Of a DNA stretch of 64,000 bases, positions 47,253 to 55,993 are shown in pieces. This DNA is from Prochlorococcus sp. AG-409-P03 (lineage in GTDB: Bacteria; Cyanobacteriota; Cyanobacteriia; PCC-6307; Cyanobiaceae), in the NCBI GenBank assembly GCA_003215295.1, contig QCKN01000001.1, positions 62,001 through 126,000 of the forward strand, in the 5' to 3' direction. The notes under the pieces are model-generated. The model was not told where the DNA came from, made no database searches, and was given only the letters and a program-made list of their open reading frames with translations. The position numbers and the translations under genes were made by a program. The first letter of the stretch is position 1. Each line of letters starts with the position of its first letter.

Positions 47253-47324
47253 AGCGGGTGACCGGACTCGAACCGGCGACGTTCAGCTTGGGAAGCTGAC
47301 ATTCTACCGCTGAATTACACCCGC
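47253..47324 (-). tRNA. tRNA-Gly (anticodon CCC)
   Basis: On the minus strand the sequence folds as a cloverleaf. The acceptor stem GCGGGTG pairs with CACCCGC over seven bases, and the D arm ATTC/GAAT is present. The anticodon stem TCAGC/GCTGA holds the loop TTCCCAA, giving anticodon CCC, and the T arm CCGG-TTCGAGT-CCGG is complete. The CCA end is not encoded. The anticodon reads GGG glycine codons. Confidence 0.95.
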
Positions 47325-49800: not shown

Positions 49801-51387
49801 ATGCCTGCTTCTCAATCCGATGGTCAACGAAAGCCAGCCATTGTCATTCTTGACTTTGGATCACAGTATTCTGAGTTAATAGCGCGAAGGGTTCGAGAAA
49901 CTGAGGTTTACTCACTAGTTCAGAGTTTCCGCACTTCGGCCAGAGAGCTACGCGAGCTATCTCCAAAAGGAATCATTCTTAGTGGGGGCCCCAATTCCGT
50001 ATATGCAGATGGAGCTCCTCTTTGTGATCCGGAAATTTGGAATTTAGGTATACCTGTTCTGGGGGTTTGTTATGGCATGCAATTGATGGTTCATCAGTTG
50101 GGTGGTCAAGTGGAGTTGGCGACTGGAAAGGCTGAATATGGGAAGGCACCGCTACACGTAGATGACCCCACTGCATTGCTGACTAATGTTGCGAATGAAT
50201 CCACGATGTGGATGAGTCATGGAGATTCCGTTAATCGGTTGCCTGAGCACTTTGTGCGATTAGCACATACATCCAATTCTCCAGAAGCTGCTATTGCTGA
50301 TCATTCTAGGAAACTTTATGGGGTTCAGTTTCATCCAGAAGTTATCCATTCAACTCATGGGATGGTTATGATTAGAAATTTTGTTTATCACATTTGTGGT
50401 TGTGAAGCCAATTGGACGACAACAGCATTTATTGATGAAGCTATCGCACAAGTAAGAGATCAGGTTGGTGATAAGAGAGTTTTGCTTGCATTGTCTGGTG
50501 GGGTTGATTCATCAACACTTGCATTCTTGCTGCATAGAGCCATTGGAGATCAGTTGACATGTATGTTTATAGATCAGGGATTTATGAGAAAAGGTGAACC
50601 GGAATTTTTGATGGACTTTTTCGACAAAGAATTTCATATTAACGTTGTATATATTAATGCCCGTGAACGCTTTATAGAAAAGCTTTGTGCTATTACAGAC
50701 CCAGAAGAAAAAAGAAAGATTATTGGTAATGAATTTATTCGTGTTTTTGAGGAAGAGAGTATTCGATTAGGACCGTTTGATTACCTTGCACAAGGCACTC
50801 TTTATCCCGACGTGATTGAAAGTGCTGCAACTAATGTGGATCCGAAAAAAGGAGAGCGGGTAGCGGTGAAAATCAAAAGTCATCATAATGTTGGAGGCTT
50901 ACCAAAAGATCTACAATTTAAATTAGTTGAGCCTCTAAGACGACTTTTCAAAGACGAAGTTCGTAAGTTGGGAAGGTCTCTAGGATTACCTGAGGAAATT
51001 GTTAGGAGACACCCTTTCCCTGGACCTGGTTTGGCAATTCGTATTTTGGGGGAGGTTACTAATCAAAAACTTAATTGCTTGAGGGATGCAGATTTAATAG
51101 TTCGTGAGGAAATTCGTAATGCGGGTTTATATCATGATGTGTGGCAGGCTTTTGCTGTTTTACTTCCCGTTTGCTCGGTAGGTGTGATGGGCGATCAGCG
51201 CACATATGCCTGGCCAATTGTTTTGCGCTGTGTTTCTAGTGAGGATGGGATGACTGCTGATTGGTCACGCTTGCCTCATGAGGTTTTAGAATGTATTTCT
51301 AATCGAATAGTCAATGAGGTTAAAGAAGTTAATCGAGTGGTTTTTGATATAACTAGTAAGCCACCTGGAACCATTGAGTGGGAGTAA
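49801..51387 (+). CDS. guaA: GMP synthase (glutamine-hydrolysing)
   Basis: Converts XMP to GMP with glutamine and ATP. The 528-residue product has a class I glutamine amidotransferase domain with the nucleophile Cys90 in GVCYGMQ and the partner FHPEV, then the ATP-pyrophosphatase loop [10 protein letters not shown], and a C-terminal dimerisation domain ending in [12 protein letters not shown]. Length is standard. Last conserved gene before the putative island; the next 292 bp hold no gene but several repeats. Confidence 0.97.
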
Positions 51388-51425
51388 TCAAGAGAGAAGA
51401 AACCTAGTTATATCTTAAAAAAACT

Positions 51426-51507
51426 ACATCTCACGTTAATCTCACGTCAGTTTTTGATTACCTGTTTGTAAGGATTTTCACGCAAACATCTCACGTACAT
51501 CTCACGT
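51426..51507 (+). repeat. Four copies of ATCTCACGT in two pairs 60 bp apart
   Basis: ATCTCACGT occurs at 51428-51436, 51439-51447, 51488-51496 and 51499-51507. Within each pair the copies are 11 bp apart, about one helical turn, and the pairs are exactly 60 bp apart. The sequence lies between guaA and the restriction endonuclease gene. Such phased sites are typical of DNA-binding proteins that bind side by side, or of recombinase arm sites. No binding protein is known. Confidence 0.75.
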
Positions 51508-51531
51508 TGGACTATTCTGCGTCTCTACGTA

Positions 51532-51567
51532 GACATCGTATTGTATGTCGTGTCCCATATTATGGGA
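51532..51567. promoter_or_regulatory. Operator-like inverted repeats upstream of the restriction-modification genes
   Basis: GACAT (51532-51536) and ATGTC (51545-51549) form an 8-bp-spaced inverted repeat. TCCCATATTATGGGA (51553-51567) is a perfect 15-bp palindrome around one central T. Both sit 110-150 bp before the endonuclease ATG. A controller protein, or the methyltransferase itself, could bind here to delay endonuclease expression. This is inference. Confidence 0.45.
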
Positions 51568-51679
51568 TAAATAATTAAGAGAGGCGTAATTCTTGTTTTG
51601 GTTTTTATATTTTAAAAACAAATAATTTTCAGGATCTTTTAAAAATGCAAGCTAGTATCAATTTAATTGACATACTGTT

Positions 51680-52315
51680 ATGTCTCAAAAATTTGACAAT
51701 TCAGATATTAATTATGTTATTAAGACGTTAGAAAATTTTTCTGCTAAATATCCAGAGTTGATTAATCATAATTCGGATGATTTAGAAACTAGAGTCAAAA
51801 TTTCTTTCAATAAGGATATTATTCCATCAATTCCATTAACAGTTTCAGATCCTTTGGTTTCTGTAATTTTAGAGGGCTATTACAAAATAGAAAAGAAAAA
51901 TCTAGAAAAAGTTGCTTATCAGCATAAATTATCTATGGCATCTGAAAATATTGTTGGTGAGTATTTAGAGTTATATATTTCAAGTAAAACGCATAAAAAT
52001 AGAAGTTGGGTGCATTGTGTAGATAGCCTTGTAAAAGGAACAGATTTTGTCAAATATGATAATGAAGAGTGGCAATTCCTACAAATAAAAAATAGATATA
52101 ACTCTGAAAATTCTTCATCGGCACGAATAAGAAAAACTTTTAAAAAAGAGTATGGAATTGAAATCAAAAAATGGTTTAGGACTAATAGGGACGGAACAGA
52201 TAATTGGTCTGTGTTCCCAGATAAAAATTTACCTGATAAACAAGAATCTAAACTTTTCAGTGAAAAAGATTTTAGAAATTTTATTTTTTCTTACTTAAAT
52301 CATTTAAATACTTAA
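51680..52315 (+). CDS. Type II restriction endonuclease, SinI-like
   Basis: Product of 211 residues resembling the SinI family (SinI cuts G^GWCC). Shared features recalled from the family: LSMASENIVGEYLELYI, CVDSLVKGTDFV, WQFLQIKNRYNSENSSSARI and IEIKKWFRTN. The likely metal site is a PD-(D/E)XK variant with Asp122 and Gln135-Ile-Lys137. The gene lacks a Shine-Dalgarno and is AT-rich. It lies 13 bp before a cytosine-5 methyltransferase on the same strand, the expected partner. Specificity for GGWCC is a family-based inference; the window contains GGWCC sites (for example at 46 and 661), which would need methylation. Confidence 0.8.
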   Translation: MSQKFDNSDINYVIKTLENFSAKYPELINHNSDDLETRVKISFNKDIIPSIPLTVSDPLVSVILEGYYKIEKKNLEKVAYQHKLSMASENIVGEYLELYISSKTHKNRSWVHCVDSLVKGTDFVKYDNEEWQFLQIKNRYNSENSSSARIRKTFKKEYGIEIKKWFRTNRDGTDNWSVFPDKNLPDKQESKLFSEKDFRNFIFSYLNHLNT

Positions 52316-52328
52316 CTAGGATATGTAA

Positions 52329-53501
52329 ATGAATTGTTTATCCTTTTTTAGTGGATGTTTGGGGTTAGATACCGGATTAAAGCTTGCCGGCATTGATCAT
52401 TTATTATTTTGTGAAATAGATAAATTTGCTAGTAGTACTATCAAGTTAAATAATCCAGACGTCCCATTAATTCAAAATATTTTAGATTTCGATGCAGTAG
52501 AAATTAGAAAGATTGCAGGTCTTACTTCTGAAGAGAATATTGATTTAATTGTTGGTGGCCCTCCTTGTCAAGCATTTTCAACAGCAGGGAAAAGAGCAAG
52601 CTTTCAAGATCCTAGAGGTAATGTGTTTTTACATTTTATTGATATTATCTCTCAACTCAAACCAAGATATTTTGTAATTGAGAATGTAAGGGGACTATTG
52701 TCTGCTGCTCTAAGGCATAGACCTCATTCTGAAAGAGGCATTGATAAACCTCCATTAACATCAGATGAGATGCCAGGAGGTGCATTAGCAGAAATCTTAA
52801 AGGTCTTATCAAATGAGGGTTATCAAATTTCTTTTAATTTGTACAATACTGCAAATTTTGGAGTTCCTCAAAAAAGAGAAAGAGTAATAATTATTGGAAC
52901 TTTAAATAGTAGGAAAGTGCCATATCTTATACCTACTAATTCAGATAAAGAGGTTTATGGATTGCCACCATGGAAAACTTTCAGAGAAGTTGTAAGGGGT
53001 TTAAAAGAATCAGAAGCGGAATTTATCAATTTTTCAAAAAACCGAATTAAATTTTATGAGTTTTTGAAAGAAGGTCAATATTGGCGAAATTTACCTGATG
53101 AAATCAAACAAAAAGCCATGGGCAAAAGCTTATACTCTGGTGGAGGTAAAACAGGTTTTTATAGAAGAATATCTTGGGATAAACCTACTCCTACATTAGT
53201 TACTCATCCTGCAATGCCTGCTACTGATTTATGTCATCCAGATATTATTCGTCCTTTGTCAGTTCAGGAATACAAAAGGGTTCAAGAATTTCCTGATGAT
53301 TTTCTTTTATTCGGTAATACTTTGCAAAAATATAAACAATTGGGTAACGCTGTGCCAGTTGGGTTTGGAAGGTTAATTGGTAAACATATAATCCAACATT
53401 CAAAAGGTGAAGAGTTTAATCTGAACAAGTTTAAAAATTTTCCATATTCAAGGTATAAAAATACTTCAGATGAGAATTGGTATCAACTTAACAGTTCTTA
53501 G
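52329..53501 (+). CDS. DNA (cytosine-5) methyltransferase
   Basis: Modifies cytosine in the recognition site shared with the endonuclease next to it. The 390-residue product has the ordered m5C motifs: I FFSGCLGLDTGLKLAG, IV GGPPCQAFSTAGKR with catalytic Cys80, VI ENVRGLL, VIII QKRERVIIIG, IX RPLSVQEYKRVQEFPDDF and X YKQLGNAVPVGFGR. The target recognition region lies between VIII and IX (about 200-290). The start ATG at 52329 has AGGA upstream. The order is endonuclease first and methyltransferase second, which requires delayed endonuclease activity when the pair enters a new cell. Confidence 0.94.
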   Translation: MNCLSFFSGCLGLDTGLKLAGIDHLLFCEIDKFASSTIKLNNPDVPLIQNILDFDAVEIRKIAGLTSEENIDLIVGGPPCQAFSTAGKRASFQDPRGNVFLHFIDIISQLKPRYFVIENVRGLLSAALRHRPHSERGIDKPPLTSDEMPGGALAEILKVLSNEGYQISFNLYNTANFGVPQKRERVIIIGTLNSRKVPYLIPTNSDKEVYGLPPWKTFREVVRGLKESEAEFINFSKNRIKFYEFLKEGQYWRNLPDEIKQKAMGKSLYSGGGKTGFYRRISWDKPTPTLVTHPAMPATDLCHPDIIRPLSVQEYKRVQEFPDDFLLFGNTLQKYKQLGNAVPVGFGRLIGKHIIQHSKGEEFNLNKFKNFPYSRYKNTSDENWYQLNSS

Positions 53502-53683
53502 CTACCTTGAAAGCTTTTGACTGAATAACTATTCACAAAACCAACTGATCGCTAACTACACTAAACTTCATAAGAGTGCATGATGCATATTCACTGCTCT
53601 GTGAATTCTTTAACTAGGATTAATAATTGGGTCATCCACTGATTGTTCTAATATCGTATAATCATAGATTATACATTCGAGGT

Positions 53684-54508
53684 ATGCAAAATATAGATTC
53701 TTCTGTTGTTAATGACTTTGGTAATGAATGGAGTGAATATAATCAAAGTAAATCTGATTTAAATCTAGAGAAAGCATTTGAACAATATTTTTCAATTTTC
53801 CCCAAACATGTATTACATGATCAGTCTGTGGGTTTTGATGCAGGCTGTGGTAGTGGAAGATGGGCAAAATATATAGCTCCAAAAGTGAAGTACTTATATT
53901 GTTTTGACCCAAGTTCTAAAGCATTAGACATTGCCAAGCAGAACCTTTCTCAATATAAAAATTGCTTTTTTGAATGTTCATCTATTAATCAGGTTTCAAT
54001 TACTGAAAACTCCATGGATTTTGGCTATTGCTTAGGAGTTTTACATCACATTCCAGATACTAAAAGGGCCCTTTCTGCTTGTGTTTCTAAACTCAAGAAA
54101 GGCTCTCCACTGTTAGTTTATCTTTATTATAGATTTGACAATAAGCCAATTTGGTTTAAGTTTATTTGGAGATTATCAGATTCATTAAGAAAAGTTATAT
54201 CAATTCTACCTTTTTCAATTAAATTATTCATTACTAAATGCATTGCTTTAGTAGTTTATTTTCCTTTAGCAAGATTATCTTATCTTCTTGCCATCTTTGG
54301 ACTTGATGTATCCAATATCCCTTTATCGGACTATAGAAATAAGGCTTTTTATTATATGGCTACTGACTCTTTAGATAGGTTCGGAACTAGACTTGAAAAA
54401 AGGTTTACTAAAAAAGAAATTTTTTCAATGATGACTGATGCTGGATTAACTTCCATCACCTTCAGTAATCGAACTCCATTCTGGGTTGCAATAGGCTATA
54501 AAGAGTAA
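53684..54508 (+). CDS. Class I SAM-dependent methyltransferase (type 11/12)
   Basis: Small-molecule or glycan methyltransferase; the target is unknown. From ATG 53684 the product has 274 residues. The SAM motif I is GFDAGCGSGRWAKYIAPK, followed by CFDPSSKALDIAK and the motif FGYCLGVLHHIPDTKRAL with conserved histidines. The C-terminal half contains two hydrophobic stretches (about 165-210), suggesting a membrane-associated position. This type often sits in surface polysaccharide clusters, but here it stands alone after a restriction-modification pair. An in-frame TTG at 53627 gives 19 extra residues without family character. Confidence 0.82.
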   Translation: MQNIDSSVVNDFGNEWSEYNQSKSDLNLEKAFEQYFSIFPKHVLHDQSVGFDAGCGSGRWAKYIAPKVKYLYCFDPSSKALDIAKQNLSQYKNCFFECSSINQVSITENSMDFGYCLGVLHHIPDTKRALSACVSKLKKGSPLLVYLYYRFDNKPIWFKFIWRLSDSLRKVISILPFSIKLFITKCIALVVYFPLARLSYLLAIFGLDVSNIPLSDYRNKAFYYMATDSLDRFGTRLEKRFTKKEIFSMMTDAGLTSITFSNRTPFWVAIGYKE

Positions 54509-54671
54509 TCCTTCACTCATTACATGTTACTTTTGTGTAGATAGATGGCTGATTAGACCTCCAATTTTAACAATTCAGCCTAGATAATTAGAAATAGACT
54601 GCTTCTGAACTTTCTTTTACTATAATATTAGTCAATAGATTCTTTCGTTTTCGTTTTCAATCCCTTGCTTC

Positions 54672-55808
54672 TTGTTCTTGAGCGTTAGATTCCTAAGATC
54701 CCTGATACCCTTGAATCTCTTTTCTCAAAGCTATTTTCGATTCCTATCGACCGTTCAATTTAAACGGTTAATTTTTTCGTTCGCGCTTGCTTGTTCTTCT
54801 ATATTACCTTTCCCCGTTAGGGCGGAAACTTATAGATACCACTTAGATCGTGGCATCTCAATGGCAGAGAACGGAGATTTTCAACCAGCAATTTCAGAAT
54901 TTAACCAGGCTTTGCAATTAAGTCCTGATAATCCTTTGATTTACTTTAATCGAGGCACAATTAAGGGACAGGCATTAAATGATATCAATGGAGCAATCTC
55001 TGATTTTACAAAAGCTATTCAGTTGAATCCATCCTATGCAATTGCGTATAATAATCGTGGTAACGCAAGAAAACAGATTGGAGATTATTTAGGAGCTTTA
55101 TCTGATTACAAAAAAGCCTTATTTTATCAACCAAACTATGCTAGAGCACATTATAATTCAGGCGCTACAAATAATATTTTAGGTAATTATAAATTAGCTA
55201 TTAAAAGCCTTAATAAGGCAATCGAACTTAATCCCAAAAGCGTTTATTCATATCAAGATAGAGGAAATGCGTATTATCTGACCGGTAAGTATCGATTTGC
55301 TATACTTGACTATCAGAAAGTGATTGCATTAAATCCTCAAATACTCGATATTTACCATAATATCGGTAGTGCAAAGAATCAATTGGAAGACTATTCTGGT
55401 GCTATCGCTGCATTTAATAAGATAATAGAAGTATCACCAAAGGATTCAGTTGCTTATTATAATCGTGGCAGTGTGAGGAATTTTGCGTTTAATGATTGGA
55501 AGGGAGCATTAGCGGATTTTAATATGGCAATTAGTCTTGATCCTAATTATTCTCGAGCGTACAACAATCGTGGCAATATTAAAAAACAATTAGGCGATTT
55601 GACTGGAGCAATAGCAGATTTTGATCGAGCAATTAGTTTGGATCCTAATTATGCTTTAGCTTATTATAATAGAGGTATTGTACGCGAAGAATTGGGTCAG
55701 AAAGCACTAGCTTGTAGTGATTATGAAAAGGCAGCTGAGTTTGGCTCTCGCACTATTGCTATAGAAGTTATGGAAGAAAGCTCTGTATGGTGTCAACAGC
55801 AATTATAA
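54672..55808 (+). CDS. Exported TPR-repeat protein (about eight to nine repeats)
   Basis: Product of up to 378 residues. The N-terminus is long (about 50 residues) with a signal-like stretch LIFSFALACSSILPFPVRA. From residue 53 a regular array of 34-residue TPR units follows, many with NRGN or NRGT at the turn (AYNNRGNARKQIGDYLGAL, AYNNRGNIKKQLGDLTGAI). Two adjacent units, near 55540-55680, are almost identical at DNA level, so repeat expansion is recent. The start is uncertain, as the upstream codons are TTG. Such proteins are scaffolds; the partner is unknown. It closes the island. Confidence 0.82.
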   Translation: MFLSVRFLRSLIPLNLFSQSYFRFLSTVQFKRLIFSFALACSSILPFPVRAETYRYHLDRGISMAENGDFQPAISEFNQALQLSPDNPLIYFNRGTIKGQALNDINGAISDFTKAIQLNPSYAIAYNNRGNARKQIGDYLGALSDYKKALFYQPNYARAHYNSGATNNILGNYKLAIKSLNKAIELNPKSVYSYQDRGNAYYLTGKYRFAILDYQKVIALNPQILDIYHNIGSAKNQLEDYSGAIAAFNKIIEVSPKDSVAYYNRGSVRNFAFNDWKGALADFNMAISLDPNYSRAYNNRGNIKKQLGDLTGAIADFDRAISLDPNYALAYYNRGIVREELGQKALACSDYEKAAEFGSRTIAIEVMEESSVWCQQQL

Positions 55809-55993
55809 GATTACAAGCATTGAGATTCGAAGAATTCTTTAGTTCTTTTTAGAGTTAACAATTGTGTTGTTTTGGTATTTCAGGATTTCAAGAGTTGAGT
55901 AATAACTTTTTGCGCTGAAGTCTATATACTTGTCTACTAGGGCTGGTTTAAAGTAGTAATACTCGATATCCTGGGTCACTAGCATTCACTGCA

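What the first reader, a model, noticed from the sequence alone, without database searches (positions are those of the whole stretch)
51388..55993. Island inserted between guaA and the PBP2 unit, carrying a SinI-like restriction-modification system
Seen: endonuclease and m5C methyltransferase genes 13 bp apart, then a lone methyltransferase and an exported TPR protein, all AT-rich and flanked by core genes. Known: SinI-type pairs recognise GGWCC. Complete type II systems are uncommon in Prochlorococcus, and phage defence is a strong reason to gain one. Inferred: acquired defence island with GGWCC specificity; GGWCC sites exist in the window itself.
Basis: partly seen in the sequence, partly recalled or inferred. 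Interest (0 to 1): 0.6.

Follow-up and report, generated by a model that had tools for sequence, protein, structure and literature searches.

The report
Old GGWCC restriction system beside guaA
A Prochlorococcus genome carries an AvaII/SinI-like restriction-modification pair that appears to have left a genome-wide shortage of its target GGWCC, and the pair sits behind the recognisable end of a family of mobile DNA segments that insert one after another at the end of the guaA gene.

Summary
Between guaA and a conserved 203-aa gene lie an intact RE_SinI endonuclease (Pfam E 3.2e-40), an m5C methyltransferase 13 bp behind it, a small-molecule-type methyltransferase and a TPR protein. The endonuclease keeps every side chain that AvaII uses for catalysis and for reading GGWCC. 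GGWCC is the most depleted of 123 palindromic words tested in 464 kb of the host (160 seen, 359 expected); in 341,569 bases of relatives the ratio is 0.88. At aligned sites, relatives' GGWCC mostly became GGSCC rather than deamination products. So the pair looks active, GGWCC-specific and long resident, not recent. The endonuclease occurs in 1 of 400 family genomes.

The insertion also has a recognisable cause. Directly behind guaA the window carries four ATCTCACGT repeats at +41, +52, +101 and +112. They match the left end of guaA-targeted elements found in 25 of 149 family genomes. Those elements form tandem arrays bounded by copies of the guaA tail; one has a tyrosine integrase beside its repeats. 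The window's right end and integrase are missing. TPR genes are ordinary tenants of this site. The restriction pair is a new member of a known family; the guaA arrays look like a new variant of additive integrative islands.

The parts
49801..51387 (+). guaA (GMP synthase); its 3' end is the target of the element family
   Evidence: Pfam GMP_synt_C and GATase; guaA tail copies bound the elements in relatives
51393..51494 (+). left end of a guaA-directed integrative element
   Evidence: model R1, built from 14 left ends of other genomes without the window: 19.4 bits, E 3.9e-5, next best in the window 7.5 bits; only match in the host genome
51428..51507 (+). four ATCTCACGT repeats at +41, +52, +101 and +112 from the guaA stop (arm-type sites, inferred)
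   Evidence: only such cluster of a 9-mer in the window; the paired pattern has no exact match in 59 relatives, only scattered 3-mismatch ones
51553..51567 (+). perfect palindrome TCCCATATTATGGGA upstream of the endonuclease gene, possible operator
   Evidence: only match in the window; 19 of 100 shuffles have one at up to 2 mismatches
51680..52315 (+). SinI/AvaII-type endonuclease, predicted G^GWCC
   Evidence: Pfam RE_SinI 3.2e-40; AvaII 6g3b E 6.5e-32; key residues; Foldseek top 8 hits all AvaII
52329..53501 (+). cognate m5C methyltransferase, without the N-terminal HTH domain of most relatives
   Evidence: Pfam DNA_methylase 1.9e-64; 52-59% identical to 15 cyanobacterial partner enzymes; HTH_17 in two relatives, one below cut-off
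53627..54508 (+). Methyltransf_11-type methyltransferase, probably a surface-sugar or small-molecule enzyme; likely start 53684
   Evidence: Pfam 2.2e-16; homologues in 4 other genomes of 300 searched; neighbourhoods
54672..55808 (+). TPR-repeat protein; common tenant of this site
   Evidence: Pfam TPR_11 2.1e-58; TPR genes at the same place in L005, L025, L033
55994..56605 (+). conserved 203-aa gene marking the right border of the hot spot
   Evidence: 48 named loci found with it

Best explanation
This is a working, long-resident type II restriction-modification system of the SinI/AvaII family. Predicted mechanism (inferred from AvaII): the endonuclease dimer cuts unmethylated GGWCC after the first G, reading the central W through a bound metal ion; the methyltransferase puts m5C on the host's own GGWCC sites, so incoming phage DNA is cut. 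Selection against occasional cuts has removed more than half of the host's GGWCC sites. The pair reached its place in, or next to, an integrative element aimed at the 3' end of guaA. In relatives such elements carry arm-like repeats at fixed distances behind guaA and stack in tandem arrays bounded by copies of the guaA tail, with TPR, methyltransferase and sometimes restriction-like cargo. In the window only the left end survives, so the element is probably immobile. Shown: the genes, their residues, the depletion, the left end. Inferred: enzyme activity, the methylated base, which recombinase moves the elements, and that the pair travelled on the element.
For: RE_SinI E 3.2e-40; AvaII E 6.5e-32; all AvaII catalytic (E123, D147, Q161, K163) and readout side chains (H108, M112, E115, N116, N170, S171) present (residues from PMC7337904). 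GGWCC O/E 0.45, z -10.5, lowest of 123 words, relatives 0.88; 21 of 21 host stretches below expectation; none of 62 relative loci as low. At aligned sites GGWCC became GGSCC in 25 of 42 cases against 3-33% for 11 control flanks. Endonuclease in 1 of 400 family genomes. Left end: E 3.9e-5 in the window; repeats at +41/+52/+101/+112 against +40/+51/+101/+112 (L031), +39/+50/+100/+111 (L270), +40/+101/+112 (L204).
Against: No right end and no second guaA tail in the window (best 14 of 21 letters, as in shuffles). No integrase in the window; the host's only serine-recombinase hit is 26% identical and on another contig. The methyltransferase lacks the HTH domain, and the R-first tandem order is seen in 0 of 24 other complete loci, so regulation is unclear. 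The endonuclease N-terminus is shorter than AvaII's, and the model is only moderate (pLDDT 73.7). The nhmmer version of the left-end model was weak in the window (E 0.032). The GGWCC counts cover 464 kb of a 1.36-Mb, 71%-complete assembly.
Confidence: 0.85

Rival explanations
1. The GGWCC shortage was caused by another or earlier system, now lost, and this pair is a recent or inactive copy.
For: Site avoidance can be a trace of lost systems (PMC4687349, abstract). The pair's genes are still AT-rich, and no relative of the endonuclease was found in 399 other family genomes.
Against: Both genes are intact with conserved active sites; the host genome has only one match each for the endonuclease and the methyltransferase; the depleted word is exactly the one predicted from the endonuclease.
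Confidence: 0.1
2. The shortage is mutational: deamination of m5C at GGWCC rather than selection against cutting.
For: m5C is prone to C-to-T change (established knowledge).
Against: GGWTC/GAWCC, the product if the inner C is methylated, is 813 against about 783 expected at the relatives' ratio, while about 262 GGWCC are missing; GGWCT is not raised either. The commonest single change at aligned sites is W to S at the centre, 28 of 55 single changes, against 10 that are C4>T or G2>A.
Confidence: 0.04
3. The repeats behind guaA are a regulatory site of the R-M operon, and the genes came by ordinary homologous recombination, without a guaA element.
For: They lie 170-250 bp upstream of the endonuclease gene, next to a palindrome; no right end or integrase in the window.
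Against: The same spacing occurs directly behind guaA in loci with no R-M pair and with different repeat words; an independent model finds this one place in the host genome; all 21 named guaA loci without a left end lack such repeats.
Confidence: 0.1

Closest known systems
AvaII (Anabaena variabilis) / SinI restriction endonuclease, Pfam RE_SinI
   Same: Fold, catalytic residues, GGWCC readout residues
   Different: About 46% identity over the shared core; shorter N-terminal part; gene order R then M in tandem
SinI/AvaII-family pairs in cyanobacteria and on plasmids (Psychrobacter pA42P5, Vibrio p09022A, Klebsiella LR890250, Treponema pTS1)
   Same: Endonuclease and methyltransferase adjacent; methyltransferase 48-59% identical
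   Different: 21 of 24 complete loci convergent, 2 divergent, 1 tandem with M first; most methyltransferases have an N-terminal extension of about 70-136 codons, absent here and in pA42P5 and p09022A
Additive flexible islands with repeated tRNA 3' ends (Methylophilaceae fGI-2, PMC10872708)
   Same: Insertions marked by repeats of the last ~20 bp of the target gene (passages read)
   Different: Target is the protein gene guaA, with conserved arm-like repeats at each end
Tycheposons of Prochlorococcus
   Same: Cargo-carrying integrative elements with tyrosine recombinases (passages in PMC10872708; the original paper is not held)
   Different: Described there with tRNA targets; these elements use guaA
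guaA-targeted genomic islands of other bacteria (GIsul2, ICERspD18B)
   Same: guaA is named with these islands (search listing only; integration at guaA recalled)
   Different: Not compared by sequence here

Membership tests
SinI/AvaII type II endonuclease | Match to RE_SinI above the curated cut-off | tested here: met
   138.2 bits against 22
SinI/AvaII type II endonuclease | AvaII active site E123, D147, Q161, K163 | tested here: met
   all four identical (residues from PMC7337904 section 21)
SinI/AvaII type II endonuclease | GGWCC readout residues H108, M112, E115, N116, N167, N170, S171 | tested here: met
   all identical; T168 (main-chain contact) is S
SinI/AvaII type II endonuclease | AvaII fold | tested here: met
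   Foldseek best 8 hits all AvaII, E 1.3e-12 to 1.9e-10, TM by query 0.44-0.55
SinI/AvaII type II endonuclease | Cleaves GGWCC | not testable with these tools
   indirect only: genomic depletion
SinI/AvaII m5C methyltransferase | m5C methyltransferase domain and similarity to partners over the whole catalytic domain | tested here: met
SinI/AvaII m5C methyltransferase | N-terminal HTH domain (common, not universal) | tested here: not met
   absent; HTH_17 in L081 and, below cut-off, L084; extension also absent in two plasmid relatives
guaA-directed integrative element | Left-end sequence and repeat spacing behind guaA | tested here: met
guaA-directed integrative element | Right end with second copy of the guaA tail | tested here: not met
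guaA-directed integrative element | Own integrase | tested here: not met
   none among the interval ORFs; many relatives' cassettes also show none, one relative (L270) has a tyrosine integrase there
Tycheposon | tRNA as target site | tested here: not met
   only tRNA in the window is at 47253-47324, about 4 kb away

The most novel reading that the evidence does not exclude
Prochlorococcus has an integron-like site at the 3' end of guaA. Small cassettes, many with a single gene and no recombinase of their own, enter one after another; their ends keep a fixed repeat spacing while the repeat words change ('dialects': CTTCACCGTG, GTTCCCCGTG, AGTTTCACACG, ATCTCACGT), presumably in step with different tyrosine integrases. 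The window is a new dialect whose cassette brought, and then locked in, a GGWCC restriction system that reshaped the whole genome's word usage.
Probability: 0.6. Interest if true: 0.72.

Novelty: new variant of a known kind. Interest (0 to 1): 0.58.

Why it matters
Genetic transformation of Prochlorococcus has not succeeded, and host defences such as restriction are named among the hurdles (PMC7523629, passages). A restriction specificity that can be read both from the enzyme and from the host's word usage gives a directly usable prediction. A guaA array of cassettes would be a non-tRNA route by which this abundant phototroph trades surface, TPR and defence genes, with the exchange site, the repeats and a candidate integrase now named and testable.

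Tried and rejected
Endonuclease relatives in viral contigs: none. The integrase of L270 in viral contigs: none. The repeat pattern hit two viral contigs without guaA or a guaA tail nearby, so no phage carrier was found. The guaA tail pattern in viral contigs gave 16 stretches; six that encode a guaA-like gene are only 52-61% identical to this guaA and were not followed.

Small serine recombinase as the mover: relatives 98-100% identical lie inside guaA elements (L205, L211), but the 37-83% identical relatives checked (L220-L225, L227-L229) have no guaA tail nearby (identities), and L270 has a tyrosine integrase beside the repeats. I therefore prefer the tyrosine integrase and treat the serine enzyme as possible cargo.

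Promoter scan: 11 found against 16.8 in shuffles, uninformative. Cyanophage check: P-SSP7, P-SSM2 and P-SSM4 stretches do not avoid GGWCC (34, 211 and 32 sites), but they infect other hosts. The first substitution tally counted the same host place several times; the deduplicated one search replaces it.

Full report
What is there. The coordinates and genes are as described. Pfam gives RE_SinI for 51680-52315 (E 3.2e-40), DNA_methylase for 52329-53501 (1.9e-64), Methyltransf_11 for 53627-54508 (2.2e-16) and TPR for 54672-55808. PADLOC agrees on REase_II and MTase_II. The host is the only genome of its genus in the collection; a tree of two flanking proteins puts it within the Prochlorococcus clade (100/99), nearest to four AG-363 single-cell genomes with weak support (89/43).

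Specificity from the enzyme. The best solved relative is AvaII, E 6.5e-32. I read sections 20, 22 and 23 and passages of PMC7337904. The active-site residues E123, D147, Q161 and K163, the side chains that hold the W-reading metal ion (H108, M112, E115), the minor-groove reader N116 and the major-groove loop N167, N170, S171 are all identical in the window; T168, a main-chain contact, is serine. A model from 17 sequences has pLDDT 73.7 and pTM 0.63; its eight best PDB matches are all AvaII chains, with a high overall rmsd (about 18-19 A), which I read as different placing of parts in a moderate model.

Specificity from the genome. In 464 kb of host DNA (window plus 20 stretches, about a third of the assembly) GGWCC has O/E 0.45 and z -10.5, the lowest of all 32 five-letter W/S palindromes; GGSCC is 1.05. 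Of 123 palindromic words with expectation above 15 it ranks first both by z and by ratio to relatives. Relatives of similar G+C (17 stretches, 341,569 bases) give 0.88. None of 62 single relative loci is as low; the lowest are 0.64-0.67, on small counts. All 21 host stretches are below expectation.

Selection or mutation? About 262 sites are missing (0.91 x 464 minus 160), yet GGWTC exceeds its expectation by only about 30, and GGWCT not at all. In deduplicated alignments to 68 relative loci (398 alignments), of 42 places where both have GGNCC and the relative has W, the host has S in 25 (0.60); 11 other flanks give 0.03-0.33. W-to-S changes destroy the site without touching the C that would be methylated. 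This is the pattern expected of restriction avoidance. The abstract of PMC4687349 reports that avoidance correlates with the time a system has been resident, so I read this pair as old in its lineage.

Rarity and relatives. The endonuclease is found in 1 of 400 family genomes, and RE_SinI in 19 of 386 phylum genomes including this one. The methyltransferase at E 1e-20 or better occurs in 6 of 300 family genomes, the five others at most 40% identical. Seventeen of 18 cyanobacterial loci fetched with the endonuclease also have the methyltransferase; one lies on a short contig without it. In 26 loci examined for order, 24 were complete: 21 convergent, 2 divergent, 1 tandem with M first, none R first. 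Most partners carry an N-terminal extension; the two scanned match HTH_17, one below the cut-off. The window lacks it, as do two plasmid relatives. How the window pair delays restriction until the host is methylated is open.

The hot spot. The guaA to 203-aa-gene interval in 25 named loci runs from 67 bp to 8,871 bp. In L005 and L033 a TPR gene follows guaA almost directly, so the extra DNA in the window lies between guaA and the TPR gene. L025 has an FkbM methyltransferase, a polysaccharide deacetylase and another methyltransferase in the same gap. The window's third gene has homologues in 4 other family genomes of 300; their neighbours look like polysaccharide genes by eye, without a family search.

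The element. Behind guaA the window has ATCTCACGT four times at +41, +52, +101, +112. The same spacing with other words occurs in L031 (GTTCCCCGT, +40, +51, +101, +112), L204 (CTTCACCGT, +40, +101, +112) and L270 (AGTTTCAC, +39, +50, +100, +111). All 21 named guaA loci without a left end have no such repeats. In 12 loci used for training there were 31 matches to the guaA tail (up to 4 mismatches): 14 followed by a left end, 15 preceded by a right end. Cassettes stack: L269 has four left ends in a row from guaA onward with short ORFs between them (one scanned: TPR), and L207 has three tails with a TPR gene behind each. Model R1, built from 14 left ends without the window, finds the window end at E 3.9e-5 with the next match at 7.5 bits, and finds 25 of 149 family genomes, in the host only this place. 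The nhmmer version of the model was weaker (E 0.032), but its best hit in 64 kb was the same place. L270 has a 462-aa tyrosine integrase (Pfam 7.7e-11; PDB Int chain 6en0, E 3.6e-4, which I recall as Tn1549 Int) starting about 200 bp behind guaA, right after its repeats. L263 and L035 hold partial relatives.

Other defence-like cargo. Between guaA and a tail copy L260 carries an HsdM/AlbA protein of 818 aa (N6_Mtase 1.3e-92) and a 1272-aa ResIII helicase. L209 carries, between a tail copy and the 203-aa gene, an HNH protein with PADLOC REase_II 1.3e-15. So this site seems to take up restriction-like genes more than once.

What is not shown. Activity, methylation and cut position were not tested. 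The window has no right end and no second tail, so that the pair travelled on the element is inferred from position. Which recombinase acts is inferred from one element. That I found no report of these guaA arrays rests on searches of an open-access library that lacks the original tycheposon paper.

Noticed in passing
L269 335-4275; L207 3604-5721: Tandem arrays behind guaA of small cassettes, most with one short ORF (MKKR... start; TPR where scanned), bounded by copies of the guaA tail.
   Followed up: partly
L270 2218-11171: Apparently complete guaA element with a tyrosine integrase, a 665-aa protein with a helicase-like motif by eye (no Pfam match) and a serine resolvase.
   Followed up: partly
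L260 4912-11902: HsdM/AlbA protein and large ResIII helicase between two guaA tails: a second restriction-like cargo at the same site.
   Followed up: partly
L204 4184-4975: Cassette of about 770 bp with both ends and no ORF of 90 aa or more, like a minimal non-autonomous element.
   Followed up: no
window 51553-51567: Perfect palindrome TCCCATATTATGGGA upstream of the endonuclease gene, possible operator.
   Followed up: partly
L163 1-50000 (P-SSM2): GGWCC is over-represented in this Prochlorococcus phage stretch: 211 sites against 144 expected.
   Followed up: no
L160 1873-5218 (Streptococcus phage YS162): A phage carries a SinI-family pair and a TdeIII-type endonuclease side by side, as annotated.
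   Followed up: no
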